Below are positions 6,600 through 60,889 of a stretch of 64,000 bases of DNA, in pieces. The position numbers and the translations under genes are program-made. Every line of letters begins with the position of its first letter. The first letter of the stretch is position 1. The DNA comes from Rhodocyclaceae bacterium (GTDB lineage: Bacteria > Pseudomonadota > Gammaproteobacteria > Burkholderiales > Rhodocyclaceae): assembly GCA_020445745.1 (NCBI GenBank), contig JAGRGB010000090.1:31307-95306 (forward strand), written 5' to 3'. Below the pieces are notes generated by a model. The model ran no database searches. It was not told the DNA's origin and saw only the letters and a program-made list of their open reading frames with translations.

Positions 6600-6615
6600 A
6601 CGACACCTTCCGGGC

Positions 6616-8232: not shown

Positions 8233-8239
8233 AGTGCGG

Positions 8240-35004: not shown

Positions 35005-37302
35005 ATGCCCAACGAAAGACTCCGGCCGCAATGGCTGCCCCGGACAATCGACGCACGGCTGCTCGCCGGCTTCGCCCTGATCGCCCTGCTGCCGCCTCTC
35101 TTGGCCGGCACCATCGGCATCCGCCTGCTGCGCGGCTCGTTGCAGGACGAAGCCATCCGCCATGCGTCCGCTCACGTCGAAGCCGCCGCGATCGTGCTGG
35201 CGAGCGAACTCGAGCACCACGCGCTGGCGCTGCGCGCCGCGGCCGACGGCAGTGGACTGCGCGCGATGCTGGCCAGCGCCCCACCAGCCCCCGCGGTGTC
35301 CTCCAGACGGGCGGCGGCAGCCGAGAGAGCGGCGGCAGCAGCGCGCGCCGCGGCGGCCGACCGGGTGTCCGAGGAGCTGGGCGACCTGCTGCGCGGGCAG
35401 CCGCTGTGGCAGCGGCTGCGGCTGGTGGGCCGTGACGGCGGTGTGTTGCTGCAGGTGGATCGCGGCGTCCCGCAGCCCGGCGGCGCGGTTGCCCCGGCGA
35501 TCGCCGACGACGACCAGGAAGCGCTGCGCATCGTGCTCGACGCTGCGCCCGGCCAGTTGTTCGTGTCGCCGCTGCACGATGACGCCGCCAACCGCGTCAG
35601 CCTCGCCGCCGCGGTGCGCGACGCGAGCGGCCAGACCGTCGCCGCACTGCTCGTCGAACTACCCGAGTCGGCACTGATCGGCCGCCTGCCGGTGCCTCAG
35701 CCGCTGCGCGCCGCACGCTGGCATCTGCTCGATCGTTCCGGCCGCGTGCTGCGCTGGCAGGGGCGGCCCGGCGCCGCCGAGACACCGCGGCTGCTGCCGG
35801 CGATCCAGGTCGGCGACAGCCTGCCCCGCACCGTCGCCGACCGCGTCATGCGCGGCGACAGCGGCCAGCTCGAGGATGGCAATCGCTCGGTGCTGTTCGC
35901 CGGCGTCGACGCGAAGCTCGCCCTGATCTCCAACGCCGCGTCTCCGCTGCGCTGGAGCCTGGCGGTATCGGCACCGACCACCGAGCTGCGTGGCGCCGCC
36001 GCGGCACCGACGCTGTGGTATCTCGCCCTCGCCGTGCTGCTGGTCGGGATGACGGCAGCCGGCCTGGTGTTCGCGCGGCGCCTGCTGCGGCCGTGGCATC
36101 GCCTCCAGCAGCACGCCGCCGAGATCGCCGACGGTCACTTCGAACAGCGCATCGAGATCCCCCGCGGTGGCGCGCTGGCACCGATCGCCGGCAGCATCAA
36201 CCGCCTTGCCGAGCGACTCCAGGAAGCCCGCGAGAACAAGGAGGCGCTCGAGCGGCGCGCCTCGCAACAGCAAGCCCTGGCGGCGCGGCGTGGCCAGGAG
36301 CTCGCTGCCGCGCTGGAGGAGGCCATCGCCGATCTGCCCCACGGCGTCATCCTCGCGGACCACCGGGGTCAGGTCGCCCACGCCACTGCCCGCGCGGCCG
36401 AATTGCTCGGCATCGCAGCGGAACGCCTCGACGACAGCTGGCTGCCGGCCTTGCTGCCGCCGATCGAAGCCACCCTGGATGCCGCCGAGGCCGCCCAACT
36501 CCGGATCCGGCGGCCACGAGGAGTCCTCCTGGTCGCGGTCCGGCCGCTGGCTACACGTGCCGACGGTCCGCTGCGTTTCGCCATCACCCTCACCGAGGTC
36601 GACGACAGCGCCGACAGCCACCCGCCGGTGGTGATCCCGCCGGCCCTGGTCGGCGAACTGGCAGGCGCAACCACCGAGGCTCTGGCCCGTCCGCTCGGCG
36701 GGCTGATCAAGATGGCCCAGGCCCTGCTGCGCAACGACGCACTGCCGCCGGAACCTCGCAAGCATCTCTCCCGCCTGGCCGACGAACTCGGCAAGCTGGC
36801 CGATCGGCTGGCGCCGCTGGCCGACCGCTCGATGCCGATCGAGCCGGCCCGTCAGGCGATCGATGCGGCCGACACGATCGACCGCTCGTTGGCCGCATGG
36901 GCGACCAGCGCGACGCGGCGCAATCTGACCTTCGACGTCTCCGGCCTGCTTCGCGACGACACCCGCATCGACGCCGATCCCGACCTGTTCGAAAGGCTGC
37001 TTCACCACCTGATCGCCAATGCCATGGACGCGATACCGGAAGGCGGCCGGCTGGCAGTGTCGTCGGAAGGTCGCGCGCAGCACCTCGAGATCGTCCTCGA
37101 GGACGATGGCGAGGGCATCGAAGGTAGCGCGCTGCCGAAGCTCTTCGACGCCTTCCAGGGCAGCCGCGACGACCACGCCGGCCTGGGCCTCGCCAGCGCA
37201 CGCCGCATTCTCGCCGCCCACGGTGCCGAGGTCGCGGTCGCCAGCGCACCCGGCAAGGGCACCCGTATCCGCATGTCCTGGCCGCTGGCCGGCGCCGCCT
37301 GA
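35005..37302 (+). CDS. Sensor histidine-kinase-like protein with degenerate phospho-acceptor region
   Basis: The 765-residue inner-membrane protein has a membrane helix near 22-43, a periplasmic domain with an Ala/Arg-rich coiled segment (about 100-122), a second membrane helix near 335-355 and HAMP, then a coiled coil, a PAS-like region (ADLPHGVILADHRGQVAHATA) and an ATPase domain (LLHHLIANAMDAIPEGG, DDGEGIEG, AGLGLASARRI). Where the H-box should be, the sequence reads TTEALARPLGGLIKMAQALL with no histidine, so normal autophosphorylation is doubtful. It may act as a regulatory pseudokinase. No response regulator is adjacent. Confidence 0.8.
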   Translation: MPNERLRPQWLPRTIDARLLAGFALIALLPPLLAGTIGIRLLRGSLQDEAIRHASAHVEAAAIVLASELEHHALALRAAADGSGLRAMLASAPPAPAVSSRRAAAAERAAAAARAAAADRVSEELGDLLRGQPLWQRLRLVGRDGGVLLQVDRGVPQPGGAVAPAIADDDQEALRIVLDAAPGQLFVSPLHDDAANRVSLAAAVRDASGQTVAALLVELPESALIGRLPVPQPLRAARWHLLDRSGRVLRWQGRPGAAETPRLLPAIQVGDSLPRTVADRVMRGDSGQLEDGNRSVLFAGVDAKLALISNAASPLRWSLAVSAPTTELRGAAAAPTLWYLALAVLLVGMTAAGLVFARRLLRPWHRLQQHAAEIADGHFEQRIEIPRGGALAPIAGSINRLAERLQEARENKEALERRASQQQALAARRGQELAAALEEAIADLPHGVILADHRGQVAHATARAAELLGIAAERLDDSWLPALLPPIEATLDAAEAAQLRIRRPRGVLLVAVRPLATRADGPLRFAITLTEVDDSADSHPPVVIPPALVGELAGATTEALARPLGGLIKMAQALLRNDALPPEPRKHLSRLADELGKLADRLAPLADRSMPIEPARQAIDAADTIDRSLAAWATSATRRNLTFDVSGLLRDDTRIDADPDLFERLLHHLIANAMDAIPEGGRLAVSSEGRAQHLEIVLEDDGEGIEGSALPKLFDAFQGSRDDHAGLGLASARRILAAHGAEVAVASAPGKGTRIRMSWPLAGAA

Positions 37303-37832
37303 GGAAGCGCGCCACTGGCGGCGAACGCATTCCCTCGGCCGTTGCAGGCCAATGCCCGCGCCTGCACCAGCCAACCGAGCAGGCGTTGCAGTCGCGGTCA
37401 GGCGGGATTCGCGAAAGGGACTGCGCAAGGCGGAAATCGCCAGGAGCCGTGCTCGCCAGCAGGCACGGCCAGTTGCGCCGAAGATGAAATCGGCGCTGCA
37501 GGATCGGCCGCGACCTGGGCGAGTTACCAGTGGCAGACGTTCTTCAAGACCGCTGTTTCCCTCTTCCCGGGAGCAAGAGGAGTCATGCACCCCAATTCCG
37601 CGGCGCCTCCCGATCCGGGTCAGCCTTTCGCGTGCTCGCCATCGGATACCAGCTCGAAGGGTCGGAGCCGGAAAGGTACTGCCCGTCACCCAGACGTCGG
37701 ACCGGGTATCTGAACGGCGGGAGACCGTTGAAAGCTGCCGGGCGATCTAATTCAGCAAGTCGGCCTGAGCTGTCATTGGAGTCCCTCTTGCGTGATGTCA
37801 GCAATTGGCCTGATTTCAGCCAGTGGCTCTGG
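37303..37832. other. Gene-free left border of the defense island
   Basis: About 530 bases. No convincing reading frame, tRNA, integrase or clear direct repeat was found. This is the junction between the chromosomal kinase-like gene and the lower-G+C island. Confidence 0.55.
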
Positions 37833-38927
37833 TCAAGAAACCAGTTGTGCGGCGTTGAAAATACCTGTGGCGTGGCATCCGTCAAGAAAGGCTTTTTTGA
37901 GGAAGTTGCAGTCCGCGTAGGGGCTGCACTGTGTATGCCATGCCAACGCTGCCATGTAGTCGCTTGGGTCCCGACCGAGATACCTCCACTCGCCCAGCAT
38001 TTGGTCCAGCCAATATCTGCCACCGTTTTGCTTCCCGCAAAACTTGGCCTTGTAGCGCTCGTCAATTCCGTACACGTTCCGCCAGGTTTCGATCTTTTCA
38101 CTCAGATCGTCAGGGCCGAACTGAAGATCCAGGTCTGCTGGCGTCAGCTTCTCGATGTCGGATTGCAGCAGGGTGACCCTCAATTGAATGGCGTACGGCG
38201 CTTCCGCGTAAGGGTAGAAGGCTGCACGGCGGTGAGCACCACCGGCGGGATCCTTCGGGGTGTAGGCAGGGTCTTTGCTGGTCTTGTAGCTGCTATTGCA
38301 GTGATGGCAGGCAGGGACGAGATTCTTGAAGTTGGCCGAATTAAACGGGTAGAGCGCCTTGGGCAGGTAGTGGTCGTAGGCATCCCGCTTTGAGTGGTAT
38401 TCGCCCAGCAAGTCAGCGATGCCGCAGAACGGGCAAACGTCCGCCTGGTTGGCGGCCATGAAGGCTCGGTAGTGATCATCGATCGCCCCGGTCTTTGCCT
38501 TCAGTGCCGCCACATCGAGATAGGAATAGACCCGTTTGAAAAATGACGCCAGCTGATCCCGCACATCCTCCAGTTCGCCCGGGAAGTCGGCATATCGCAT
38601 CACCGACGCGGCCGGGTCATTGGCGCATACGCTTTCGATGTCGTTATTCGCTCGATACCGCTGACGGAACTGGTCGATCTGGCCAGCGCTCAGCACAGCA
38701 AATAGTCCGTAGATGCGCTCCACGTGTCCAGAAAAGAATTCCGCCCCCCTGCTGTCGTCGTAGTGAAACGCCGTCATCACTTCATGCAGTTCGGGGTTCG
38801 GATTGAACAAATCCAGGCTGAATGGTCCGCTTACCGGCGCTTGGCACCACACCTCGAAAAAGATGAAGTCGATGAAGGCCTGCATCTTCTCTATCGGGTG
38901 CGGCACGTGGGTGTAAGGAAACAGCAT
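37833..38927 (-). CDS. HNH endonuclease (PtuB-like partner of the adjacent ATPase)
   Basis: The 364-residue protein carries an HNH domain near residues 160-220: CPFC (165-168), YHSKRDAYDHYLPKA with the catalytic-type Asp-His, NLVPACHHCNSSYK with Cys207 and Cys210 completing a zinc site and Asn211 after. N-terminal 150 residues are helical and unlike known domains. Its ATG overlaps the ATPase stop by one base (TGATG), so the two are surely made together, as in the Septu system (PtuA ATPase, PtuB HNH nuclease). It is the last gene of the hsd operon. I infer a DNA or tRNA/plasmid-cutting effector; the target cannot be seen. Confidence 0.82.
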   Translation of the reverse strand: MLFPYTHVPHPIEKMQAFIDFIFFEVWCQAPVSGPFSLDLFNPNPELHEVMTAFHYDDSRGAEFFSGHVERIYGLFAVLSAGQIDQFRQRYRANNDIESVCANDPAASVMRYADFPGELEDVRDQLASFFKRVYSYLDVAALKAKTGAIDDHYRAFMAANQADVCPFCGIADLLGEYHSKRDAYDHYLPKALYPFNSANFKNLVPACHHCNSSYKTSKDPAYTPKDPAGGAHRRAAFYPYAEAPYAIQLRVTLLQSDIEKLTPADLDLQFGPDDLSEKIETWRNVYGIDERYKAKFCGKQNGGRYWLDQMLGEWRYLGRDPSDYMAALAWHTQCSPYADCNFLKKAFLDGCHATGIFNAAQLVS

Positions 38928-40738
38928 CAGCCCTGCGCCCCCCCGTTGCCTTGTTGGCCATGGTCGAGAATGGCATTGATCAGCAGGATCTTCTCCACCG
39001 AGTCGCCCAACTCGCGATGGATGTCGTCGATCAGCTCGTCCGATGCCTCGCCTTGCTCAAAGCGGGCGCGGAAGCTCTCCAGCACCGCGTGCGCCCGCCC
39101 GCCGATGGTCTCGCGCTTGCCAAAGACTTCACTCATCGTGATCTTGTTGATCGAGGCGCCGAGCGTGTTGAATTCGGGGTGCGTGATTTGCACTTTGCCG
39201 TCGTTAGGGTCGCGATTGAAGACCAGCACCTTGTCCCGCGTACTGTCGGAAATCAAGAAGGGCGAGTGCGTGGTGATCAGCATTTCCTGACTCACGCCCT
39301 CTCGGTCTTTAAGGCTCTCGCGCAGGCGGCTGATGAAATTGGCGCGCCAGTCGGGGTTGAAATGGGTTTCCGGCTCGTCCAGCAGGAACAGGCTGTTGGT
39401 GCCCCGAAACAATAGGCACAGGCCCAGGCTGTGCAGCAACTGGTGCTCGCCGTCGGACAGGTTCCTGAGCATCAGAGGGCCGGGCGCACCGAGCTTGCGG
39501 AAGCGGACAAACTTGAAACGCATCACCCGCTCGTCAGAGGCCAGTGTCGGCACGGTTTCGCTGACGTATTCGCTGTGCGAGCGGTAAAGGTCGGCCTTGA
39601 GGCCGTCGCTCACCGTGTACAGGTTAAGCGTCAGCAGCACCTGGAAGGCCTGAAAGAGCGCGCGCGGGTTACCCTCAAAGTTCTGCTGAAAGGCCTTTTG
39701 CGTGGCGTCGTTGACCCAATAGTCGAGGATCAGCGTGTCGGTGGCTTCATCCTGGTATTCGAGCGTGGCGCAGCGCCGCAACGCATCCAGCGCCAGCGAC
39801 GAGTGCTGGGCTTTGTCCGGCCTCTGCTCTTCCATCAAGCGCAACACGTTCAGCCGCCAGCGCCCGGTCTCTTCGTCCTGGCTCACCACCGGCTGGGCGG
39901 CCTGGAATGCCGTATCGCTGGCGAATGCTGCCCTCTCGATCGGCGCCATGAAACCGCGGGCCTGCGCTTCGTCCAGCTGCACACTGCGGCGCAGCACGAT
40001 GCGAAACTCCTGCAACGCGTCGATGCCTACGTCCTCGCGGAATGGCTGCAGGGTTTCATCACTCTCGAACAGCAGATTGCATAGCAGTACAGCCTGGCTG
40101 AAACCGCTGTCCGCATACACCAGCCGGGCATCCGGGCGGCCGGAGTATTGCGATTGGGTGCGCAGGCGGTCCCAGTATTCGTCGAACTGCACGAAGCGCG
40201 TCTTAAAAAAGGGCAGGCTTAGGATCTCGTTCTCGCCCGACGAGTAGCCCAGCACGTGTTCCGGCAGCAGAAACTCGCGGTGCTGCTCGGCGCATAGACC
40301 ATCCTTACCCAAGGCCTCAGCGTGGTCGCCGAACTCTTCGGGGTTGAGCCAATGCATACGCGGAGAACTGTCTGGCGTCTTCAGCACCCGCACATGGGCG
40401 AAACACATTGCGTTCTGCCGGGACTGGAGGGGAAGGTAGATCAGGTACTCCAGTTCAAAGCCGCGCGGCGCCCCCAAGTGTTCCAGTTCATCGAGTGCCT
40501 CGGGCAGAAAAGTGCGCTGCACGCGCTGCAGCTCAAGCTGGAAGAAGATCGCCGCCAGCGCCTCCAGCAGGTTGGACTTGCCGCTGCCGTTGCGCCCGGC
40601 GCAGACGAAGGGCGCGAAGTCGTCGCCTTTGACCTGTTCGTCCTGCAAGCTCCATTCGGTGCGGAAATGGTGCTCGAAGCCGGCTGGCAAGCTGCGAAAG
40701 CCGGCCGGATCGGTGATCTTCAGGCGCAGCAGCTTCAT
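38927..40738 (-). CDS. Restriction-system-associated AAA/OLD-like ATPase (PtuA-like)
   Basis: The 603-residue SMC/ABC-type ATPase has Walker A GRNGSGKS (48-55), a signature-like LSDGEHQLLHSLGLC, Walker B SLFLLDEPETHFNPDW and a switch His in ITTHSPFLISD. The middle (about 100-400) is a large helical insert instead of a long coiled coil. The pattern is that of ATPases found next to type I restriction systems and of PtuA from Septu. It lies three bases after hsdS and overlaps the HNH gene. I infer that nucleotide binding keeps the HNH nuclease inactive until phage infection. Confidence 0.85.
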   Translation of the reverse strand: MKLLRLKITDPAGFRSLPAGFEHHFRTEWSLQDEQVKGDDFAPFVCAGRNGSGKSNLLEALAAIFFQLELQRVQRTFLPEALDELEHLGAPRGFELEYLIYLPLQSRQNAMCFAHVRVLKTPDSSPRMHWLNPEEFGDHAEALGKDGLCAEQHREFLLPEHVLGYSSGENEILSLPFFKTRFVQFDEYWDRLRTQSQYSGRPDARLVYADSGFSQAVLLCNLLFESDETLQPFREDVGIDALQEFRIVLRRSVQLDEAQARGFMAPIERAAFASDTAFQAAQPVVSQDEETGRWRLNVLRLMEEQRPDKAQHSSLALDALRRCATLEYQDEATDTLILDYWVNDATQKAFQQNFEGNPRALFQAFQVLLTLNLYTVSDGLKADLYRSHSEYVSETVPTLASDERVMRFKFVRFRKLGAPGPLMLRNLSDGEHQLLHSLGLCLLFRGTNSLFLLDEPETHFNPDWRANFISRLRESLKDREGVSQEMLITTHSPFLISDSTRDKVLVFNRDPNDGKVQITHPEFNTLGASINKITMSEVFGKRETIGGRAHAVLESFRARFEQGEASDELIDDIHRELGDSVEKILLINAILDHGQQGNGGAQG

Positions 40739-40741
40739 GAC

Positions 40742-42322
40742 CTACCACGTGCCCCAATCGGGCGAACAGCTAGTCAGCGTAACGCGGTTGTCGGCATCGG
40801 CATAGCCCTGCCTCAGCCGGCCGCTGGCCAAGGCCGCGAACACCCATGCCTTGACCTGTTCGTAGGCTTCGGCCCCGAGCTCGAAATCGCTGTCCGGGTG
40901 CAGTTCGCCAATGCGCGTCTGCGCGTCGGCGAGGAAGCCCTGCTCCGAGAAGGTAGCGCCGTTCAACTGGGCGCGGTACGCCTCCAGCCAGAAGGGCAGC
41001 AGTTCCTTGAGGCGGGCGCGGTCGTCCAGCGCGGCCAACAGCAGTTCGGTGTCGGGCAGATGGATGGCGTTTTGCGGTTCAACGGGTGAAGGGCCGGCGG
41101 CCGGCATGGCGGTTTGCGGCTCCTGAGGCTCGGCATCGGGCAGCGGCACGCGGGACAGATCGAGCTCGCCCTTGAAGGCCTTCTGGCTCAGGGCGCCGTA
41201 GAGGGCTTCGAGATCGTGGAGGCTTTGCTGGTAGCTGAACTTCGTGGACTCGATCCTTTCGCCGACCTGGGCGAATTCCCGCTGCAACTCGAACGATGGT
41301 TTGATCATCGTGATTTGCTCGAAGTCACCTTTGGTCAGGATCTTCTTCATCCCCTTGCTGGCGTGACTCTGAATGTATGAGCGAGACAGCTTGAACAAAC
41401 CGTACAGAAATAATGGGCTGACATCATTCGCCGGCTGAATGGCGTTGATCTGTTGATTGAACGCCACCTTTCTGTCGGTCAGTGCGGCGCGTCCGATCGA
41501 TTCCACACTGCCGGCAATGCATGCGACGAGCAGCGCGCCTTTGGACACAGTGCGTGCACGCTTTACCCCAGACTCGGATATGTACTCGGCCGCCGTGGTG
41601 ACAAACACGGAATCAGCATCGATGTTGTCGGTCTTGATCCATTCGATGTACTGACCTCCATAGTTAGAGGCGTCATTGCGCGGCGGCGTGTTTCCGGTCG
41701 ATATCTTGCCGAAAGCTCGGAGCGAAGGCTTGTCCCACCCTTTTTCATTCCGCACCGGGTCGCCAAACATCTCCAGAAACACGCTCTTGAGCAGATCGTC
41801 GAGCTGTTGCAGTTGCTGCTGACGCTGGGCCATCAGCCCTTCCACCTTGCCGAGTAGATGGGCAATGCGGATTTGGTAGTCGTGGGGCGGAAAAGGTATC
41901 TCCAGCTGCTGGAAGTCTGCCTTTGTCAGACTGCGACGCCGTGCTACTGCACCTTGCATGCGCGAGGCGTACAGGCGCCTGGCCTGAGTTGAGCGCAGGT
42001 AACGTTCCAGGTAGGGGATATGGCAGCGAGTTTCGTTCTTGAGGCGCCAAACATCGTAGGCAGGGCTGACGATCGCTGCCGGGTATTTCGTTTGAAATCC
42101 CAGCACGCCTTCGTCAATCGGGAAGCCCACTACAAGCTCATTGCGGTAAACGACGCGGTAGTTGGACGTGTCCTGACTGGCCACGCGCTTCTTGAACTTG
42201 TCAGCTTGGTCAACCAGGCCCTGTTTCATCGTGATCGACAAGACGGGATAGTCGTTCATGCCAGCGCGATGCTGGCCGGATGGAGCCAAGAGGTCACCAA
42301 GCGACGCTTTGCTCGTGCTCAT
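40742..42322 (-). CDS. hsdS: Type I restriction-modification specificity subunit with C-terminal extension
   Basis: The 526-residue protein has two target-recognition domains, each followed by a conserved helix. The first half-repeat ends near QIRIAHLLGKVEGLMAQRQQQ and the second near REFAQVGERIESTKFSYQQS, so a two-part DNA sequence is recognised. From about residue 395 there is a Pro/Gln-rich linker (EPQEPQTAMPAAGPSPVEPQ) and an extra domain of about 110 residues not found in ordinary HsdS proteins. Its ATG overlaps the hsdM stop (ATGA). G+C is low: bases 41341-41400 contain 29 G+C of 60, against 46 of 60 at 34021-34080. Confidence 0.88.
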   Translation of the reverse strand: MSTSKASLGDLLAPSGQHRAGMNDYPVLSITMKQGLVDQADKFKKRVASQDTSNYRVVYRNELVVGFPIDEGVLGFQTKYPAAIVSPAYDVWRLKNETRCHIPYLERYLRSTQARRLYASRMQGAVARRRSLTKADFQQLEIPFPPHDYQIRIAHLLGKVEGLMAQRQQQLQQLDDLLKSVFLEMFGDPVRNEKGWDKPSLRAFGKISTGNTPPRNDASNYGGQYIEWIKTDNIDADSVFVTTAAEYISESGVKRARTVSKGALLVACIAGSVESIGRAALTDRKVAFNQQINAIQPANDVSPLFLYGLFKLSRSYIQSHASKGMKKILTKGDFEQITMIKPSFELQREFAQVGERIESTKFSYQQSLHDLEALYGALSQKAFKGELDLSRVPLPDAEPQEPQTAMPAAGPSPVEPQNAIHLPDTELLLAALDDRARLKELLPFWLEAYRAQLNGATFSEQGFLADAQTRIGELHPDSDFELGAEAYEQVKAWVFAALASGRLRQGYADADNRVTLTSCSPDWGTW

Positions 42323-43980
42323 CCCACCATCCCCTTCAGTTCCAGCAACTCCCGCACGATGCCACTCGGCACCTTGTCCAGGTCGGCCTCAGCCACGTCA
42401 CCCACCTCGGCCTCAATCAGCCGGTCCAAGATCACGCCGGGCTTGTCGTATTTGAGTTCCTCGAACACATCCTCCCGGTAGCGCGAGAGCGAGAGGTCGT
42501 AGCCCTCGACCTCGATCTCGGCACGCGGCACCATGAAGCATTGGGCTGTGCGGTCGGTGTCGGTAGCGGCCTTGCGGGCGTGATAGCGGGCGACAATGTC
42601 CTGCAGATCGCCGTAGCCCGCCTGCTTGCTGCGCTTGTCGTCGAGGCTATAGCCGTCTGCGCGCATGTCGTAGAACCACACGTGCTCGGTGGCAGATTTT
42701 GTCACCTTGTCCTTGGGCCCCCAGACCTTGGTGAACAGCAGGATGGCGGTGGCCACGCCGGCGTAGGGCTTGAACACGCCGCTGGGTAGCGCAATCACGG
42801 CCTTGAGGTCGCAGCGTTCCACCAGCTTCTGGCGCAGTTCCTTGAAGGCCTTGGCGCCACCGAACAATACCCCCTGCGGCACGATTACGCCGGCGGTACC
42901 GCCTTTCTTGAGCAGGCGGTAGATGTTCTCGACGAAGAGCAACTCGGTCTTCGTGGTACCGAGGCTGAGGTTCTCATTCATGTCGCCCTTGTCGATGCTG
43001 CCGGTGAAGGGCGGGTTGGCCATAACGATGTCGTATTCGGCTTCCTCGTTGTAGCTCTTGGAGAGAGTGTCCTTGTAGTCGATGTGCGGCTCGTCGATAC
43101 CGTGCATCATCAGGTTCATCAGCCCCAGGCGCACCATGGTGGCGTCGATGTCGTAGCCGTAGAGGGATTCCTGCAAAACGGTCTGGGCCTTGGCGGTGAG
43201 GCCGGCTGCCACCGAGGTACGCACGAAGCCGTCTTCATCGGGCTGCAGTTGCTTTGCGCCCTTCTTCTTTCTCGCCAGTTCGGTGACGATGTACTGGTAG
43301 GCGCCGAGCAGGAAGCCGCCGGAGCCGCAGGCCGGGTCGGCGATCCGATGGCCCAGCTGCGGCTGCACCAGTTCGGCGATCAGCTTAATGATGTGGCGCG
43401 GGGTGCGGAACTGACCGTTCTTGCCGGCGGTGGCGATCTCGGATAGCAGCATTTCATAGACATCACCCTGGATGTCCTGAAAGGCCTGGCCTTTTTCCTG
43501 CGAGTCCTTCTCCATTACCTCAAAGATCTCGTCGATGGTCTTCACCGCCTCGACCAGCAGGGCCGGCTTGGGGATGATGAACACCGCGTTCTTCATGTGG
43601 TGGGTGAAGCTGGAGTCGGCGCCGTTCAAGTCCTTAAGGAAGGGGAAGACCTTGGTCTGCACGTGCTGCAGCATCTCTTCGGCCTGCATGCGCTTGAATT
43701 CGCTCCAGCGCAGGCTGCTGCGCTCGATGGCGAATTTTTCGGGTTCACTCTGGTTGCGGTATTCCGGTGGAATCCAGGTGCCGGCGAACCTCGATGTGTA
43801 GGCTTCGCCCGTAAATTCGGCATCGGCCTGGCGTTTGAGATCCAGTTCGTCGAGGCGCTTCATGAACAGCAGGTAGGTGATCTGCTCGATGGCGGTGAGC
43901 GGGTTGCTGATGCCGCCGGACCAGAACTTGTTCCAGAGCTGGTCGATCCTGCTCTTGAGTTCGGGGTTGTTCTGCAACAT
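42319..43980 (-). CDS. hsdM: Type I restriction-modification DNA methyltransferase subunit
   Basis: The 553-residue N6-adenine methyltransferase has the HsdM N-terminal helical region (residues 1-150), the AdoMet motif DPACGSGGFLLGAY (215-228) and the catalytic motif NPPF (322-325). It methylates the host recognition sites together with HsdS. GAGGA lies upstream of ATG 43980. It overlaps hsdS by four bases and follows the DinD gene by about 50 bases. Confidence 0.93.
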   Translation of the reverse strand: MLQNNPELKSRIDQLWNKFWSGGISNPLTAIEQITYLLFMKRLDELDLKRQADAEFTGEAYTSRFAGTWIPPEYRNQSEPEKFAIERSSLRWSEFKRMQAEEMLQHVQTKVFPFLKDLNGADSSFTHHMKNAVFIIPKPALLVEAVKTIDEIFEVMEKDSQEKGQAFQDIQGDVYEMLLSEIATAGKNGQFRTPRHIIKLIAELVQPQLGHRIADPACGSGGFLLGAYQYIVTELARKKKGAKQLQPDEDGFVRTSVAAGLTAKAQTVLQESLYGYDIDATMVRLGLMNLMMHGIDEPHIDYKDTLSKSYNEEAEYDIVMANPPFTGSIDKGDMNENLSLGTTKTELLFVENIYRLLKKGGTAGVIVPQGVLFGGAKAFKELRQKLVERCDLKAVIALPSGVFKPYAGVATAILLFTKVWGPKDKVTKSATEHVWFYDMRADGYSLDDKRSKQAGYGDLQDIVARYHARKAATDTDRTAQCFMVPRAEIEVEGYDLSLSRYREDVFEELKYDKPGVILDRLIEAEVGDVAEADLDKVPSGIVRELLELKGMVG

Positions 43981-44031
43981 GGTGGGGTGATCCTCGGTCG
44001 GCGGCGTGTGCGGGCTGTGGCGCTTGGCAGC

Positions 44032-44889
44032 CTAATTCTTCGGGGGTGGCAGGGTACCTGATTGCCGGACGAGCTTCTTTTCGTCGGCCTTGACGCGTCG
44101 CTCCAGCTTCTTGATGTCATCTTCCGGCGGCAGTTTTTCGGGTTTAATGCCGCGCTGCCCCAGCATGTCGCGCACGCTTTCATTGTTCTGCACATGCTCA
44201 CGGGTGATGGCGTGCTCGCCCTGCAGGTCGTCCTGGCTGACGTTGTGATTGGTGATTTCTGTGGCCAGGTTCTTCGCGGCAATGGTCAGGGTGGGCAGGA
44301 AGTCGGCCAGCGGACGGGTCTTGGTGATGCCGAATCGGTCCTTCATGGCCTGGGTGGTGTGGCCGCCGAAGAGTGCTGCGTCGCCCCTCGAGCGGATGCG
44401 TCCGAAGCCGGCATCGTCAACGCCGCGTTCGTATATGTTCTGGGACAGCATCTTTTCGGATTCACGCAGGCGCTCGCGGGCATCCAGCCGGGCTTGCAGG
44501 CGCATGCGGTCTTCGATCAGCTCCTGCTTGCGCGTCTGGATGGCAAAGTAGCTTTGGGCGAAGGCGATGGGTTCCTTGCGCGGGTCGCCGTTCTGCGCGA
44601 CGAGATAGCAGGCGTAGCGGGTCAGCATGAAGTCGTCGACGGGCCGCTGGCCACCCTTGCCGATCTCGATCATTTTCGTGACGCCACGAAAATGATCGTC
44701 AACCGGATAGCCGGTTGTTTCGCAAGACTCAATGGCGCGCTGGATGGCGGTTTGAAAGTTCTCCCAGCGTGCGTATCCGAGCGGCTCCATGAGGTCGCGG
44801 GCAAACCAAAACTCGACGTTGTCGTCAGGCGTGCGCTGACTGAGAGCGTCGAATTGGTCTTTCATCAGTTGAACGGCACCGGGTTGCAT
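44032..44889 (-). CDS. dinD: DNA damage-inducible protein D family (DinD)
   Basis: The 285-residue protein has a Bro-N-like start (NVEFWFARDLMEPLGYARWENF), the DDFMLTRYACYLVAQNGDP block and a C-terminal part with DMLGQRGIKPEKLPPEDDIKKLERRV, all as in DinD. In E. coli DinD is SOS-induced and inhibits RecA filaments. DinD genes are often found inside type I RM operons, where they may tie restriction to DNA repair. AAGGAG precedes ATG 44889. It sits between hsdR and hsdM, separating the cutting and methylating genes. Confidence 0.85.
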   Translation of the reverse strand: MQPGAVQLMKDQFDALSQRTPDDNVEFWFARDLMEPLGYARWENFQTAIQRAIESCETTGYPVDDHFRGVTKMIEIGKGGQRPVDDFMLTRYACYLVAQNGDPRKEPIAFAQSYFAIQTRKQELIEDRMRLQARLDARERLRESEKMLSQNIYERGVDDAGFGRIRSRGDAALFGGHTTQAMKDRFGITKTRPLADFLPTLTIAAKNLATEITNHNVSQDDLQGEHAITREHVQNNESVRDMLGQRGIKPEKLPPEDDIKKLERRVKADEKKLVRQSGTLPPPKN

Positions 44890-44918
44890 GCTGACTCCTT
44901 GTCCCTTCCGACTCGCAA

Positions 44919-47717
44919 TCACGCGGCCAGACTTTCGGTGAGTTGAAGGATCTCGTTGATTTCGGCAGGGCCGAATACGCCGCGTATACCTTGCGGATGA
45001 ATGACGGTGAAGGGCGCATTGATCAGGTCCTTCTTCTCAACCTTTTCGCGCTCGACAATAAAATCCCTGAGAAGATTAAGGAACTCCAGCTGGCGGCTGC
45101 CGAGCGTGGTGTGGGCGCGGATGAACTGGTCGAACGCCGCACCGACTTCGTCGGGGAAACTCTGCAGCATTTCGATGCCGAGAATGTGGCGGATGAACTG
45201 GATGAAGCGCGCCTTGCGGTTCTTGTAGACTTGGCGCAGCAGGTCTTCGGTGATGTGCGGATGCTCTCCGTGCAGCAACTCGGCCAAAGCTTTGGCTTCT
45301 TCGGCACTGACCGCCTCGCCGGCCTTGAGCTTCTGCAGCACCGGGTTATGTTCGGTCAGCTCGGCAATTAGGGCCTCGACCATCTCACGGTAGCGGGTGA
45401 TGCTCGCGGCTTCGTGCTGCGGCCCGAACTCGACCATCTCCTTTCGGTGCAGCTCGTCGGTGAGGTCCAGATGGACCGGCCCAGGGCCGATCATGGCTTC
45501 GCGGAAGTTCATCAGCGAGCCGAGCCTGGCCGCCAGCGCGTCAAACTCGTCCTCACCGGCCTTGGCCCAGTAGTGGTTGCTTTGCGCGGCGCGGATCAGC
45601 GCCTCTTCCTGTTTGACGAAGGGCACGGACAGCGGCAGTTCGCTGATCTGCTCGACAATCCCATCTTTGAGCGTGTCAGCCTGTTCCTTCTCCTCGCACA
45701 GCACAGCGAGCGAGTATTCGAGCAGGTCGCGCTCGAAGCGCATGGCCTTGAAGTCGGCCTCGGACACGGTGCGGAACAGCGGCTTGATCTCGGCCCGCAG
45801 GAATTCCAGCTTCTGCGGCGTGAGGCCGATCCAAAAGTTCTCTTCCTGCAACCGAGCGAGGGCCGGCGCGGCCTCCTTGATGATCACCGAGTGCTTGGGG
45901 AGCGTGGCGATCTGCCAGCGCAGCTTGGCGACTTCGCGCTCGGCGATGTCAGCATGGCCGATAGCGATGGCTTTCTCGATCTTTTCCAGGCGCAGGCCCA
46001 CGAGTTTGACGGGTAGCGGCAGCTGAGCCTTGAGCTCCTTGCCCTTGGGTTGCAGCTTGAAGTATTCGAAGTTGTCCCAGCAGTCGAGGATGAGGAACAC
46101 ATCCTTTTCGGCGCACCAAGGCTTGGGTTTGCTGGCTTCCAGCAGGCGTGTGCCGCGCCCGATCATCTGCCAGAACTTGGTGTAGGAATAAACCGGCTTG
46201 ACAAAGACCAGGTTGACGATTTCACGCACGTCGATGCCGGTGTCGAGCATGTCCACGCTGATGGCGATGCGCGGCATGTCGTTGTTGGTGAACTGGTCGA
46301 GAAGGCCACCCTTGCCGTACACGCGTGGGTCGTCCGACACCAGCACCTTGGCCAGCTCACCGTGGTGCTGCGGATAGAGCTTGTCGAAGATCTCTTCGAT
46401 GCGGCGGGCGTGGGCCTTGGACGAGCAGAAGAATATCGTCTTTCCGGGCAGCACGCCGGTACTGTCCTTGATGCTCTCTTCCATGAACTCCCGGACGATC
46501 AGGGTGTTGGTGCCAGTGTTGACGACCTCCTTTTCGAGCTGGGTGCCTTCGAAGTTGATTTCTTCGACGTCTTTGCCCTGGAGGATGAGCTTCTTCTGGT
46601 CTTCCAGCGAGATGGTGCGCTTGCTGATACCTTCCATCTGGAACCGTGTCTGGATCTTCATGACCTGGAAGCTGCAGAGGTAAGGCGGCTCGCGGTTGAC
46701 CGCTTCTTCGAAGGTATAGGCGAAGGTGGGGAGGCCGTCCTCGCAGTGGAAGAGCTGGAAAGTGTTGTGATCGATGATGTCGGTTGGGGTGGCCGTCAGC
46801 CCGAGGGTGATGGTCTTGAAATAGTCAAGGACCTCGCCGTAGGTGTTGTAGATGGAACGGTGACTTTCATCGACGACGATGAAGTCGAAAAAATGCGGTG
46901 AGAGATGCTGCACTTCATCGCGAATGATGTTTAGCATCGTCGGGTAGGTGGCGACATAAATGCGGCGATCCTTCGCTACGAGCTTTTCGCCAACGTTGGG
47001 CCAGCGCGGCTCGTCGGGCATGTGTTCCTTGAAGGCGGCCAGGGCTTGCTCGCGCAACGCGATGCGGTCGACCAGGAAAAGCACCCTCTCAGCATAGCCG
47101 GCGCGCATTAGCGCATCGACCATGGCGATGCACGTGCGGGTCTTGCCAGTGCCAGTGGCCATGACCAGCAGGAAGTTGCGCTTCTTCTGCTCGATGCCTT
47201 CAAGCACAGCGCGGATGGCGCGGATCTGATAGTCGCGCCCGGCGATGGACGTGTTGATGAACTCCTGCGTCAGCGGCTTGCGGTTGCGGCGGATGTAGGC
47301 GAAGCGCTCCAGATCGTCGCGCGTGGGAAAGCCGACCACCTTGTGGGGTGGTGCGTTACCCAGATCCCAGAAGTAGGTCTCGAGACCGTTGGTGTAGAAG
47401 CAGAACGGAAGCTCGCCGCCGAGTTGCTTCTGGATGTTGTGGCAGTACTGCTTGGCCTGCTCGCGGCCGATGGCGGCATCACGGCTGGTCTTCTTGGCCT
47501 CGATCACGGCCAGCGGCCTGCCGTCCTTGCCGAGCAGGACATAGTCGCTGAACTGATGGCCTTCGTAGGGCGTGCGAGGCTCAGCCACGCCTAGGGGCAG
47601 GCCGACGAGGATGTCGAACTCTTCAACCACCTGCGTGGGGTCCTTGACGTTCCAGCCGGACAGGGCAAGCTGCTGATCAATAAGCTCTGACCGCGTTTGT
47701 GCTTCGGTTTTCAACAT
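44919..47717 (-). CDS. hsdR: Type I restriction endonuclease subunit R
   Basis: The 932-residue subunit has an N-terminal PD-(D/E)xK nuclease (Asp58 in FSDYVLLGKDGRPLAVIEAKK, Glu73 and Lys75), then a translocating helicase with ATGTGKT (187-193), DESH (283-286), GLTATP and a second RecA-like domain (DTGIDVREIVNLVF, QMIGRGTR). An EcoEI-type C-terminal domain follows. All motifs for ATP-driven DNA translocation and cleavage are intact. It is the first gene of the six-gene operon; its ATG 47717 has no strong ribosome-binding site. Confidence 0.92.
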   Translation of the reverse strand: MLKTEAQTRSELIDQQLALSGWNVKDPTQVVEEFDILVGLPLGVAEPRTPYEGHQFSDYVLLGKDGRPLAVIEAKKTSRDAAIGREQAKQYCHNIQKQLGGELPFCFYTNGLETYFWDLGNAPPHKVVGFPTRDDLERFAYIRRNRKPLTQEFINTSIAGRDYQIRAIRAVLEGIEQKKRNFLLVMATGTGKTRTCIAMVDALMRAGYAERVLFLVDRIALREQALAAFKEHMPDEPRWPNVGEKLVAKDRRIYVATYPTMLNIIRDEVQHLSPHFFDFIVVDESHRSIYNTYGEVLDYFKTITLGLTATPTDIIDHNTFQLFHCEDGLPTFAYTFEEAVNREPPYLCSFQVMKIQTRFQMEGISKRTISLEDQKKLILQGKDVEEINFEGTQLEKEVVNTGTNTLIVREFMEESIKDSTGVLPGKTIFFCSSKAHARRIEEIFDKLYPQHHGELAKVLVSDDPRVYGKGGLLDQFTNNDMPRIAISVDMLDTGIDVREIVNLVFVKPVYSYTKFWQMIGRGTRLLEASKPKPWCAEKDVFLILDCWDNFEYFKLQPKGKELKAQLPLPVKLVGLRLEKIEKAIAIGHADIAEREVAKLRWQIATLPKHSVIIKEAAPALARLQEENFWIGLTPQKLEFLRAEIKPLFRTVSEADFKAMRFERDLLEYSLAVLCEEKEQADTLKDGIVEQISELPLSVPFVKQEEALIRAAQSNHYWAKAGEDEFDALAARLGSLMNFREAMIGPGPVHLDLTDELHRKEMVEFGPQHEAASITRYREMVEALIAELTEHNPVLQKLKAGEAVSAEEAKALAELLHGEHPHITEDLLRQVYKNRKARFIQFIRHILGIEMLQSFPDEVGAAFDQFIRAHTTLGSRQLEFLNLLRDFIVEREKVEKKDLINAPFTVIHPQGIRGVFGPAEINEILQLTESLAA

Positions 47718-48222
47718 GGCCCGCTGTCAATTAAAGGCGCTGCAAGGTGTTCTGATCGGGAGTTGGCGCGGCGAAATGGGATGGTAATTGAATGTCTGCA
47801 AATTCCGAAGGCATGGTAGGCGTGTTTGATGGCGAACTCGCACGCACCGATGCCGCCGGCTTGATGAGCCAGAGCCTACAGATCGACGACGTTTAGCGCC
47901 GTGCGGCAGGTGTTGGCGGAAGTGCCGCCGCTCAGTTTGTGCGAGCTGGCCGGCAGCTCAGGCCGATCAACTGTAGGTCGGTTGCTGCACGGAACGACTG
48001 CTCGAATCTGGAACCAGACATTTGAAGATTAGCGACGACTACCTGGAATAGGTCGGTCGCAATCCGCCGACTGCAACGGTTCAACAGTTCCTCCTCTGTA
48101 GTCCCAGCCGGGCCGCCAGACATCGAAGTTGTGAAAATGGTGGGCAAAGCGCAATGTGACGGCGCAGAAACTGCGCCGCTGCCGATACGATCAGATGATC
48201 CCGTCCGATCCGATCACCGCAT
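47718..48222. other. Gene-free right border of the defense island
   Basis: About 500 bases upstream of hsdR. It should contain the operon promoter, but I see no clear -35/-10 pair. A 35-codon frame starting MSANSEGMVGVFD at about 47792 and a 71-codon minus-strand frame at 47932-48147 are too weak to call genes. An 8-bp hairpin (48160-48178) is described separately. Confidence 0.55.
48160..48178 (-). terminator. Strong hairpin downstream of the HAF-repeat gene
   Basis: CGGCGCAG-AAA-CTGCGCCG is a perfect 8-bp stem with a three-base loop, about 45 bases after the stop at 48223. No T-run follows on the minus strand, so it is at best a transcript-end or stability hairpin. Confidence 0.4.
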
Positions 48223-49206
48223 CTAATTGCATAGGGTCGATGGGGTCAAGACAAAGCCCACCTGCTTAAAGGAAAAGACCGAAAGATCAATCTCCAGCAT
48301 GGCTCCGACGATTTGCCCGGCATCGTTGATTCCAGTGACCTTATGGGACATGCGGAAAATGCCGTCCGTGCCTTCGCCGACGTACTCAGGCGGCAGCAGA
48401 TCCGCAGCCGGGGTGAAGACACCTTCGCTGTAAAGACCGTCGCTGGTAACGAACTGCCCCAAATTGTTCATCTGGATCTGGATGGTCTGCGCGACCAGGA
48501 CCGTATTCCAGGGTACGCCGGTATCGGTCAACACGCCGTTTTCCCAGAACTGGAATGTCGAAGTATTTCCGTCGCCCTGGACGATGACCAAGACCTGGCC
48601 TGCGTCGTTGATCGCCGCCCCCTGCGAAATGCCCCCATTCGGAGACGGAATCGTGTCGATCGTTCCGTCGACATGGCGCACGAAGGCGAGGCGCTCACTA
48701 CCGTTGACCATGTGCGCAGTTCCAACCACGGCACCTGCATTGTTGATGTCGATGGCAAATGCCTGGTCGCGGCCATCGATAGTGAAGGCTTCGACGATCC
48801 CGTCTTTGTAGATGAAGGCGCCGCCCGAGTTGGCCTCACCCACTACCGTGCCGGCCTCATTCACGTCCCAGGCGACCGCAGCCCCGGGGATTGGTGTTTC
48901 GATTCCGTCTTCGAACACGTAGCCGGCGCCAAAGCCACCGGCGACGGTACCTTGACTGTTCAGGCCAAAACCGGGGCCGTCGGCGAGCACGCCAAGGATA
49001 CTATCCTTGTATAAGAACGATTTGGCGCCGACACCCGGAATACTCAGCGAGCCGGTTACCGCGCCGCTTGCCGCAATGGCATTTGGACTTATCGACTCGC
49101 CGGGCTGCATCGGAATGGCCTGGAAGGCATAACTGCCCGCATTGGCGCTTCCGACCAGGCCGGCCAGGGCCACCGCAACTGAAATTCGGAGCTTCGTGAG
49201 CTTCAT
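48223..49206 (-). CDS. Exported HAF-repeat protein
   Basis: The 327-residue protein has a signal peptide (AVALAGLVGSANAG) and a run of HAF-type repeats: LNSQGTVAGG, VNEAGTVVGEA, INNAGAVVGTA, INDAGQVLVIV and INDAGQIVGAM, which form a beta-propeller-like structure in extracellular proteins. Most other HAF proteins carry a PEP-CTERM anchor; this one ends in VLTPSTLCN without one, so it may be fully secreted or the end may be lost. ATG 49206 has AAGGATC upstream. No close partner genes. Confidence 0.72.
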   Translation of the reverse strand: MKLTKLRISVAVALAGLVGSANAGSYAFQAIPMQPGESISPNAIAASGAVTGSLSIPGVGAKSFLYKDSILGVLADGPGFGLNSQGTVAGGFGAGYVFEDGIETPIPGAAVAWDVNEAGTVVGEANSGGAFIYKDGIVEAFTIDGRDQAFAIDINNAGAVVGTAHMVNGSERLAFVRHVDGTIDTIPSPNGGISQGAAINDAGQVLVIVQGDGNTSTFQFWENGVLTDTGVPWNTVLVAQTIQIQMNNLGQFVTSDGLYSEGVFTPAADLLPPEYVGEGTDGIFRMSHKVTGINDAGQIVGAMLEIDLSVFSFKQVGFVLTPSTLCN

Positions 49207-50417
49207 GATCGATCCTTGTCTATCAGAGGGATTGCTACATCTTTCGTGGTGTACGGGTGGAGGGAACGCCTCCAACTGCCGCGAGTCATTACTACCGCAG
49301 CCCCCCACCCGCCGTCGGCTGCGGAAACTTGCTGCAAACGTTGGATCCGTTGAAAAACGCGGATCTCGGACATCGGACCTGTGCGGTTGGATGGCCCCTT
49401 GCCGGCAGCGACGCGCCGGCCTTCCTGGCTTGGAACCACCGAATCGGAATGACTACGCGAACGGTCCATGCCATACGCGTAGGCGAGAATCCAGATCAGC
49501 AGCACCGGTTCCCAGCCAACGCGGCACATGCGGGGCCGTTTTCATGTCGAAGCAGGCGGCATCCAAAATAAGCAGGGCGCATGATCCGCAGTCGCACGGC
49601 TCGGCGCCACGCGGGCCGTTTTCGGCACATCGGCAATGCATGTAGCATAGCACTTATGCCGAAGGGATGTTGCCCGGCTCGAATATGGACAGGCTGATCA
49701 TCGTTGCGTGTTGCCCGCCACGATCCCTGGTGCGGCGACCGGTCGTCACGCAAACGCGCCACTCATTGACCCGCCAAGCCCCATGCGGCTTCAATGGCGG
49801 CGATCGGGCGTCGGCCGTAGCGGCGCGCCGCCCCTTTGAAAACATGCGCCGGACGGTATGGTTCGAACCTTGTCCCACGCCTGAACAGAGCGTTGCCGGC
49901 CATCGCTTGCCAGTGAGCGACGGCTCGCGTGCGGCGCCACCAGGCGCCAGGTTTCGGCCGAAGGGTATCGCCAGATGGTAAGTCCGTTGATGCCAATGAT
50001 GCCGCCGATTCATTCCGTCCCGTCTGCCCAGGCGACAGCCGTGCAGGAGTCGGGACACGATGAATCGTTCGACGATCGTTTCCGGTACGACCCGCGTGAT
50101 CGTATCGACACCGTCGGTCCCGGGAATAGGTCGCCCTCCGCCATGATGATGCCGTGGAATTCGAGGCGCCCTTGCTTGACAGTCTTCCACCAGGCGCTGC
50201 AATCGCATGACCACGGACGCTGCCCAACATCGCATGCACTTCAGCCTGGTCGCGGCTCATCGCCGGGTTGGCGGCCCGCTCTGCGCCGACGTCTTCATCA
50301 AGCTCGGCCCAGCGCGGACAGCCCGGGGAAGAGGGATCGGTCGCCGTGCGGCGGCTGACGGATTCGAGCCGGGCGATGCGCCAGAATTCGAAGATCATTG
50401 ACCGACGCCAGCAAGTG
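49207..50417. other. 1.2-kb stretch without a supportable gene
   Basis: Several overlapping frames exist on both strands but none shows a family motif, a good start or a coherent composition. Basic segments such as AARRYGRRPIAAIEAAWGLAG (minus strand, about 49790-49850) gave a weak impression of an old mobile-element gene that I could not confirm. It is probably decayed DNA. Confidence 0.5.
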
Positions 50418-51065
50418 ATGATCCGTGCCGGTCTGTGGTGCGGGGTTGCCGCGCCCATCCTCTGGGCCACGGTCATCATCGTTGCCGGCGAACTACGCCC
50501 CGGATTCGACCATGTCGGGCAATACATCAGCGAACTCGGCGAACGCGGAAGTTCCCATTCGGCTTTCATGCGCTTGGCTGGCTTCGCTGCGACCGGGCTC
50601 ATGCACATCTGCTATGCAGTGGCCTTTTACGCCGCCGTCAGGCGGATGTCGGGCCGCACCCGCCTGGCGCTCCTGGTCGCCGTGCTGGTCGCGCTGGACG
50701 GTGCGGGCCGCATCGGTGCCGGCCTTTTTTCCTGTGAGCCCGGCTGTCGGGGCCCGGATACCGCCGCCCAGCATCTCCATCATCTTTCGGCGACCGTGGC
50801 GTTCCTTTCGATTGCCTCGGCTGCGTGCCTGGGGGGCATCCTTTTCCGCAGCAGCCAGCGTCTGCGCTGTCTGGCCCTCTACTCGCTCATTTCCGGTCTT
50901 GCTGGCCTGGCATTCCTTGGGCTGATGCAGACGGGTGGCGCCTTCCATGCCTATGTCGGCCTGTTCGAACGACTGGCTTCGGGTGTCTTCACGCTGTGGG
51001 TATCGATCACCGCGCTGCGATTGTCGGCCGTCAGCGTCCGGGCGGCCGGGGCGCCGCCGGGCTAG
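50418..51065 (+). CDS. DUF998 family membrane protein
   Basis: The 215-residue protein has six membrane segments (for example LWCGVAAPILWATVIIVAG, RLALLVAVLVALDGAGRIGA and LYSLISGLAGLAFLGLM) and the DUF998 features HVGQYISELGERGSSH and FSCEPGC. Function unknown. ATG 50418 is chosen because the protein from there matches family length. There is no strong ribosome-binding site; an in-frame ATG at 50376 is an alternative. It stands alone in gene-poor DNA. Confidence 0.75.
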   Translation: MIRAGLWCGVAAPILWATVIIVAGELRPGFDHVGQYISELGERGSSHSAFMRLAGFAATGLMHICYAVAFYAAVRRMSGRTRLALLVAVLVALDGAGRIGAGLFSCEPGCRGPDTAAQHLHHLSATVAFLSIASAACLGGILFRSSQRLRCLALYSLISGLAGLAFLGLMQTGGAFHAYVGLFERLASGVFTLWVSITALRLSAVSVRAAGAPPG

Positions 51066-58778: not shown

Positions 58779-58782
58779 GGCG

Positions 58783-60842: not shown

Positions 60843-60889
60843 GGACGGACTGGCCGGCGAGCTGCCGGCGATAGTGCCGCCGGCAAGGC

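What the first reader, a model, noticed from the sequence alone, without database searches (positions are those of the whole stretch)
37833..47717. Type I restriction system fused in one operon with DinD and a Septu-like ATPase/HNH pair
Six minus-strand genes run hsdR-dinD-hsdM-hsdS-AAA ATPase-HNH nuclease, with ATGA overlap hsdM/hsdS, a 3-base gap to the ATPase and TGATG at ATPase/HNH. The ATPase has intact Walker A and B and the HNH protein has zinc cysteines. Septu is a known ATPase plus HNH defense system, and ATPases near type I RM are known, but a coupled composite with dinD is unusual. It suggests a layered defense: methylation-guided cutting first, then an ATPase-gated nuclease, perhaps triggered when restriction is blocked. 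The composite and its logic are inference.
Basis: partly seen in the sequence, partly recalled or inferred. Interest (0 to 1): 0.8.

Follow-up and report, generated by a model that had tools for sequence, protein, structure and literature searches.

The report
Restriction operon with second nuclease arm
A bacterial DNA-restriction operon carries, straight after its DNA-recognition gene, an ATPase and nuclease pair related to the Septu phage defence; the same block recurs in many bacteria, often without the usual cutting enzyme, which suggests the recognition proteins can steer a second weapon against phages.

Summary
In detail: six minus-strand genes (hsdR, dinD, hsdM, hsdS, ATPase, HNH) form a tight, low-GC, probably imported operon. 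It is not a one-off. The ATPase belongs to a family NCBI already names "restriction system-associated AAA family ATPase" (TIGR04435, 733 bits). In 88 loci with it, hsdS is the next gene upstream in 86 and the HNH gene the next downstream in 84. (1) HsdR is optional: of 74 loci that could be judged, 23 lack it, with at least 12 changes on the ATPase tree; six of 21 such genomes show no recognisable full-size HsdR. (2) HsdS often has an extra C-terminal domain (26 of 52 held-out loci, 0 of 33 controls), a candidate dock. (3) The ATPase is a PtuA relative, but the HNH protein resembles PtuB only in the HNH core. DinD appears to be one of several accessory genes. Best reading: HsdM-HsdS marks self and gates a PtuA-type ATPase/HNH effector, beside or instead of HsdR. 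Trigger, target and docking are unproven. PrrC is the nearest functional precedent. New variant of a known kind.

The parts
44919..47717 (-). hsdR, type I restriction subunit, 932 aa (ResIII, EcoEI_R_C, HSDR_N); PD-ExK residues D58, E73, K75
   Evidence: PADLOC REase_I 528 bits; D/E/K in 48 of 48 aligned HsdR of 850 aa or more
44032..44922 (-). dinD accessory gene, 296 aa (Bro-N; NF008573, PADLOC PDC-S13); likely start 44889
42319..43980 (-). hsdM, N6-adenine methyltransferase, 553 aa, NPPF motif
40742..42322 (-). hsdS specificity subunit, 526 aa
40760..41068 (-). extra C-terminal domain of HsdS (residues about 419-521), candidate dock for the ATPase/HNH arm
38927..40738 (-). PtuA-type ABC/AAA ATPase, 603 aa, TIGR04435 restrict_AAA_1
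40574..40597 (-). Walker A GRNGSGKS (residues 48-55)
39371..39457 (-). ABC signature SDGEHQ to Walker B LLDEP (residues 428-456)
37833..38927 (-). HNH nuclease partner, 364 aa, mostly helical with a central HNH/zinc core; no curated family model over its cut-off
38283..38435 (-). HNH/zinc core, residues 165-215 (C165, C168, D185, H186, N202, C210, N211, K215)
37295..62216 (.). 24.9-kb stretch that is 341 bases in congener G390 and about 3.5 kb in G394; holds the operon; operon GC 0.600 against 0.684-0.686 for the flanks

Best explanation
The operon is a type I restriction-modification system with a second effector arm. HsdM-HsdS methylates the host's sites and so defines self. The PtuA-type ATPase docks on the M-S complex, probably through the extra C-terminal domain of HsdS, and holds the HNH nuclease latent. 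When M-S meets unmodified phage DNA, or is blocked by the phage, the ATPase changes state and the HNH nuclease is released or switched on. In the window this runs beside HsdR; in hsdR-less relatives the ATPase/HNH pair would be the only effector of the locus. Shown: gene order, intact motifs, PtuA relationship of the ATPase, recurrence, optional HsdR, the HsdS domain. Inferred: docking, gating, trigger, and whether the target is DNA or tRNA.
For: hsdS is the next same-strand ORF upstream in 86 of 88 loci and HNH the next downstream in 84 of 88, mostly with short overlaps or gaps. No solo copy with room around it: the two loci without hsdS end 409 and 510 bases upstream. R+ 51, R- 23, unknown 14 of 88, and at least 12 changes of R state on the tree. 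No full-size HsdR recognised in six of 21 R- genomes. hsdM keeps NPP[FYW] in 22 of 22 R- loci with a full hsdM and HNH residues are the same in 83 of 83 rows, so both activities look selected with or without HsdR. HsdS domain in 26 of 52 held-out loci at E<=0.01 and 0 of 33 controls (Fisher p 1.1e-7). Natural control: G169 has HsdM 85% identical to the window's but HsdS without the domain, followed by a different ATPase, PDC-S46. L094 (nuclease scanned as PtuB1-type) and L098 (alike by eye) have short HsdS without it. Distances of ATPase and HsdM correlate (r 0.79, n 67; 0.70 in 20 R- loci).
Against: No interaction or activity was tested. 18 of 52 held-out loci show no match to the HsdS domain profile even at E<=1, so the dock may differ or not exist there; the E<=0.01 line is not clean, since one non-HsdS ORF next to a control hsdS (L134) reached E 0.0095 in a smaller search. 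Rows are related by descent, and the distance correlations and the Fisher test are not corrected for it; HsdM and HsdR correlate more strongly (0.96) than ATPase and HsdM (0.86) in the 43 R+ loci. All 23 judged rows in the window's own 28-row ATPase clade keep HsdR, so for the window independence from HsdR is not shown. R- means none found in the fetched flank; 15 of the 21 R- genomes have an HsdR-like gene elsewhere that could act in trans.
Confidence: 0.5

Rival explanations
1. PrrC-like guard: the ATPase/HNH pair is latent while the restriction enzyme is intact and fires, probably on tRNA, only when a phage anti-restriction protein disturbs the complex, aborting the infection.
For: PrrC sits in a type IC operon, joins an ABC ATPase to a nuclease and is freed by T4 Stp (passages of PMC12707154; PMC3874165; PMC3710099). 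PtuA/PtuB-type Septu cleaves tRNA-Tyr (abstract and passages of PMC13096335). A sister system has another SMC-type ATPase in the same slot.
Against: 23 loci without hsdR would have no restriction to guard, unless M-S is the guarded part. The nuclease is HNH on a separate chain, not HEPN. No anti-restriction trigger tested.
Confidence: 0.25
2. HsdR substitute: the ATPase/HNH pair is itself a DNA restriction enzyme aimed by HsdM-HsdS at unmethylated sites, cutting phage DNA without killing the cell.
For: Repeated absence of hsdR with hsdM, hsdS, ATPase and HNH intact; no full-size HsdR recognised in six of 21 such genomes.
Against: 51 of 74 judged loci keep HsdR, and 48 of 48 aligned HsdR retain PD-ExK, so most would be redundant. 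The PtuA relatives are assemblies that hold a nuclease rather than translocases (one search shows titles only; mechanism recalled).
Confidence: 0.15
3. Autonomous Septu relative that merely shares the operon (defence-island clustering).
For: PtuA/PtuB defend without hsd genes in Septu (PMC13096335 passages); three weak viral relatives, L128-L130, stand without hsd genes.
Against: HNH next downstream in 84 and hsdS next upstream in 86 of 88 loci, no solo copy of the family with flanks; HsdS domain seen only with this partner in the sets tested.
Confidence: 0.08
4. Decayed or regulatory passenger without nuclease function.
For: Nothing direct; some single loci look broken (L048, L105, L192).
Against: Catalytic residues the same in 83 of 83 HNH rows and Walker A and signature residues invariant in the 75-row ATPase alignment.
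Confidence: 0.02

Closest known systems
TIGR04435 restrict_AAA_1 (NCBIfam 'restriction system-associated AAA family ATPase')
   Same: Full-length match, 733 bits against a cut-off of 300; the name already ties the ATPase to restriction systems.
   Different: The model gives a name only. The HNH partner is annotated 'hypothetical protein' in the four plasmid records so named that I opened. I saw nothing in print on HsdR being optional.
Septu (PtuA/PtuB) and retron effectors (Ec78/Eco7, Ec83)
   Same: ABC-type ATPase gene followed by an HNH gene; PtuA chains are the ATPase's best solved relatives by profile and by fold.
   Different: Bound to hsdM-hsdS; 364-aa HNH protein with a large helical N-terminal part, PtuB-like only in the HNH core; ATPase at 41 of 500 bits for NCBIfam PtuA.
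PrrC in EcoprrI (type IC restriction with an anticodon nuclease)
   Same: ATPase-linked nuclease embedded in a type I operon as a second line (PMC12707154, PMC3874165, PMC3710099; passages seen).
   Different: PrrC is one chain with a HEPN nuclease (PMC3710099 passages); here ATPase and HNH are separate and HsdR may be missing.
[quoted passage not shown]
   Same: Same idea of an ABC ATPase plus HNH beside a modification system (PMC12839542, passages).
   Different: BREX cores there; the survey it cites (Krishnan 2020) is not held, so whether it describes this exact block could not be checked.
MADS (methylation-associated defence)
   Same: Methyltransferase, S-like and AAA ATPase genes together; weak matches to MAD2, MAD3, MAD5.
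   Different: Scores far below cut-off (MAD2 114 of 720, MAD3 33 of 420, MAD5 19 of 400) and no other MAD model listed for the six proteins.

Membership tests
TIGR04435 restriction-associated ATPase | NCBIfam score over cut-off, full length | tested here: met
   733.4 bits against 300, residues 1-592 on profile 1-565 of 568
Type I restriction-modification | hsdR, hsdM, hsdS present with catalytic motifs | tested here: met
   NPPF in HsdM and D58/E73/K75 in HsdR
Type I restriction-modification | ATP-dependent cutting of unmodified DNA and site methylation | not testable with these tools
   needs methylome and phage plating
Septu (PtuAB) | PtuA-type ATPase | tested here: met
   at superfamily level: PDB profile search, Foldseek, PADLOC PtuA1 195 bits; the NCBIfam PtuA equivalog is not met, 41 of 500 bits
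Septu (PtuAB) | PtuB-type HNH protein | tested here: not met
   best PADLOC PtuB 29 bits, TIGR02646 21.6 of 52.15, hhalign 43% over 59 columns, no PDB fold
Septu (PtuAB) | found as a stand-alone two-gene unit | tested here: not met
   none of 86 loci with an upstream gene lacks hsdS; the other two end at a contig edge
PrrC/RloC anticodon nucleases | ABC ATPase fused to a HEPN nuclease | tested here: not met
   nuclease is a separate HNH protein; no PrrC, RloC or HEPN match (PADLOC one search shows only the best 25 of 124 for the ATPase)
PrrC-like guard (as a function) | activated by inhibition of the restriction enzyme | not testable with these tools
   needs Ocr/Stp expression or phage tests
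MADS | MAD genes over cut-off | tested here: not met
   MAD2 114 of 720, MAD3 33 of 420, MAD5 19 of 400 bits
DinD | NF008573 over cut-off | tested here: met
   381 bits against 242

The most novel reading that the evidence does not exclude
HsdM-HsdS is a general self/non-self sensor that can drive effectors other than HsdR: a distinct class of type I-like systems in which the methylated-site sensor, through an extra domain on HsdS, recruits a PtuA-type ATPase and an HNH nuclease, and in which HsdR has been dispensed with many times.
Probability: 0.35. Interest if true: 0.8.

Novelty: new variant of a known kind. Interest (0 to 1): 0.55.

Why it matters
Type I enzymes are read as HsdM-HsdS-HsdR machines, with PrrC as an add-on. 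If HsdM-HsdS gates a Septu-like effector, some hsdMS loci that lack hsdR would be complete defence systems rather than orphan methylases, defence catalogues would be missing an HNH family now annotated as hypothetical, and the question of how a restriction complex passes its self/non-self decision to a second weapon becomes testable on a four-gene operon.

Tried and rejected
Considered and rejected: (a) dinD as a defining partner: rejected, it occurs in 2 of 88 loci plus L201; slots around hsdM elsewhere hold an AlbA_2/Schlafen-type gene or a YhcG-type nuclease (both scanned in L182) and, by eye only from sequence starts, KilA-N-like, RhuM-like, XisH/XisI-like and GxxExxY-like genes. (b) MADS: rejected on score. 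(c) Upstream genes of R- loci being missed HsdR: only two were scanned against Pfam (L065: SIR2-like, PADLOC SIR2-pAgo; L072: phage integrase); the rest were judged from profile misses and sequence starts, then whole genomes were searched with four HsdR models, two on all 21 and two on nine. (d) Promoter and terminator scan: 1 and 10 sites against 2.6 and 11.0 in shuffles, no signal. (e) HNH fold search in the PDB: best E 3.3.

Led nowhere: (wrong argument); one search found no paper with the NCBI family name's phrase, none at all; VIA-align library not on the machine; papers PMC12318543 and PMC7544218 not held. A tblastn of the HsdS domain against plasmids found only one record, Kovacikia, which has the same block. 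A regex measure of HsdS tail length worked for only 67 of 86 loci (65 of them with 40 residues or more) and 8 of 32 controls (1 with 40 or more), so I rely on the profile test.
Full report
What is there. Family scans name hsdR, dinD, hsdM and hsdS clearly. The ATPase is a full-length member of NCBIfam TIGR04435, 'restriction system-associated AAA family ATPase' (733 bits, cut-off 300). The HNH protein reaches no curated cut-off: TIGR02646 21.6 of 52.15 bits, Pfam HNH 15.4 of 21.4. The operon has GC 0.600 against 0.684-0.686 on either side, and it lies in a 24.9-kb stretch that is 341 bases in congener G390 and about 3.5 kb in G394, measured where matches end. It is therefore probably imported. 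A third congener, G391, has R-dinD-M-S on one contig and an ATPase end and HNH on another (L201, L202).

Recurrence. I called ORFs and labelled them with iterated profiles of the six window proteins. I kept the 88 loci with an ATPase score of 400 or more, the window included; the 12 weaker ones, L035 and L120-L130, are set aside from the counts. hsdS is the next same-strand ORF upstream in 86 (the two misses are 409 and 510 bases from a contig end). HNH is the next downstream in 84 (misses: one contig end; L094 and L098 with another nuclease; L105 with none). hsdM lies within 9 kb in 80 (misses: seven with under 1.7 kb upstream, and L072). In a separate search of 369 genomes of the window's class, 3 had a match over the family cut-off, the window's own among them, so the system is rare there.

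HsdR is optional. Of the 88, 51 have hsdR in the locus, 23 do not although at least 5.5 kb upstream of hsdM or hsdS was read, and 14 end too early to tell. On the ATPase tree the two known states need at least 12 changes (quick tree, root not inferred, so gain and loss cannot be told apart). In the window's own 28-row clade all 23 judged rows have hsdR. For the 21 R- loci from named genomes I searched the whole genomes. HSDR_N matched in 19 of 21, but in six genomes (those of L072, L078, L082, L086, L090, L100) no ORF of 700 aa or more carries it. None of the six is over the cut-off of NF046051, TIGR00348 or EcoEI_R_C; these cut-offs are strict (3 of 21, 0 of 9 and 1 of 9 genomes over them), and HSDR_N alone missed the likely HsdR of G383, which NF046051 and EcoEI_R_C show. 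Weak helicase matches remain in the six, for example 104 bits in a 1288-aa frame of G381. Completeness of these genomes is not told. The other 15 have HsdR-like genes that could act in trans. HsdM keeps NPP[FYW] in 50 of 50 R+ and 22 of 22 R- loci with an hsdM of 420 aa or more.

An extra HsdS domain. The C-terminal ~105 residues of the window's HsdS recur at the C-terminus of HsdS in these systems, with Y, F and Q columns nearly invariant in 34 aligned rows. A profile from those rows was tested on loci not used to build it: 19 of 52 at E<=0.001, 26 at 0.01, 34 at 1, so 18 show nothing. Of 34 HsdS of 350 aa or more from loci without the family ATPase, one matched: L201, the congener whose ATPase lies on another contig; leaving it out, 0 of 33 (Fisher p 1.1e-7 for 26/52 against 0/33). 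Rows are related, so the p value is only a guide, and one non-HsdS ORF beside a control hsdS reached E 0.0095 in a smaller search. G169 is a natural control: HsdM 85% identical to the window's, HsdS of 429 aa without the domain, and after hsdS a 735-aa ATPase that PADLOC calls PDC-S46. L094, with a PtuB1-type nuclease (PADLOC 182 bits), and L098, alike by eye, also have short HsdS without the domain. This suggests, but does not prove, that the domain is matched to the ATPase/HNH arm.

What the pair is. AlphaFold2 models: HNH mean pLDDT 94.8, ATPase 90.8. The ATPase's 50 listed PDB rows are all PtuA/Septu or retron entries (best E 5.2e-13; TM by query 0.27-0.41, so domain arrangement differs; 128 rows had E<=0.001). 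By profile PtuA chains are the best solved relatives (E 7.3e-15 over the C-terminal ATPase half). hhalign with the ATPases of L126 and L127 gives 99.9% over 447 columns; L126's is PtuA-like rather than canonical (PtuA 109 of 500 bits, TIGR04435 105 of 300), L127 was not scanned. The HNH model finds nothing in the PDB (best E 3.3), its profile nothing meaningful, and hhalign with seven other HNH proteins of the same slot, three of them scanned as PtuB-type, gives 43% over 59 columns of the HNH core. PADLOC's candidate families PDC-M62B and PDC-M01B match 66 and up to 61 of 77 members; in the window protein the matched stretch is around the core. So the ATPase is a PtuA relative with a different HNH partner. 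L126 (hsdM, hsdS, PtuA-like ATPase, PtuB-type HNH: PADLOC 220 bits, TIGR02646 55 of 52.15, NCBIfam PtuB 95 of 150) and L120 (ATPase with TIGR04435 143 bits, HNH PADLOC PtuB 359 bits) show that modules of this superfamily have joined hsdM-hsdS with several nucleases.

Mechanism. What the pair follows is HsdM-HsdS, not HsdR. The likeliest reading is an effector arm gated by M-S: latent while M-S patrols methylated DNA, switched on by unmodified DNA or by disturbance of M-S. Known relatives make tRNA a real possibility as target: Septu Ec-B88 and retron-Eco7 cleave tRNA-Tyr (PMC13096335, passages). PrrC, freed when EcoprrI is inhibited by T4 Stp, is the functional precedent (PMC12707154, PMC3874165, PMC3710099, passages). 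The guard model and the gated-effector model differ mainly in the trigger; the hsdR-less loci tilt me to the latter. Distances of ATPase and HNH (r 0.88) and of ATPase and HsdM (0.79) correlate in 67 loci; in 43 R+ loci HsdM and HsdR (0.96) go together more closely than ATPase and HsdM (0.86) or ATPase and HsdR (0.79). None of this is corrected for descent.

Known or new. That ABC ATPases with nucleases join restriction-like systems is in print (PMC12839542 passages, which cite Krishnan 2020; I could not read the latter). The phrase 'restriction system-associated AAA' occurs in no paper of the library, and in the listings of searches I saw no title or abstract start that describes this block; one listed nothing. 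Listings were capped and only passages of a few papers were seen. I therefore call it a new variant of a known kind: the optional HsdR, the HsdS domain and the distinct HNH family are, as far as these searches go, not described together.

Noticed in passing
L182 (G169:C21), 5824-8031 minus: A 735-aa SMC_N-type ATPase (PADLOC PDC-S46, 757 bits) sits directly after hsdS in a system whose HsdM is 85% identical to the window's: the post-hsdS slot seems to accept different ATPase effectors.
   Followed up: partly
L065, 3630-6782 plus: An hsdR-less locus (Chryseobacterium pennae) has a single-chain SIR2-pAgo protein (PADLOC pAgo 1521 bits) directly upstream of hsdM.
   Followed up: partly
L126 (viral contig), 7023-9187 plus; L127 similar by eye: hsdM and hsdS followed by a PtuA-like ATPase and a PtuB-type HNH (PADLOC PtuB 220 bits; NCBIfam PtuB 95 of 150): a Septu-like pair joined to a type I methylase.
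   Followed up: partly
L072, 7204-10004 plus: hsdS-ATPase-HNH without hsdM or hsdR, preceded by a tyrosine recombinase; by eye the HsdS starts with a helix-turn-helix-like stretch, perhaps a recombining or broken system.
   Followed up: no
L005 and L192 (G365:C1): The ATPase is split into two ORFs (289 and 308 aa) while HsdS, HNH and HsdM remain; frameshift or true split not decided.
   Followed up: no
window 37295-62216: Insertion hotspot next to a sensor kinase gene (35005-37302): 24.9 kb here, about 3.5 kb in G394, 341 bases in G390; only about 37-51 kb is low in GC.
   Followed up: partly
L048 (Pectobacterium sp. PL152): The only other locus of the 88 with dinD; its hsdR, hsdM, hsdS and HNH frames look broken or incomplete while the ATPase frame is whole.
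   Followed up: no
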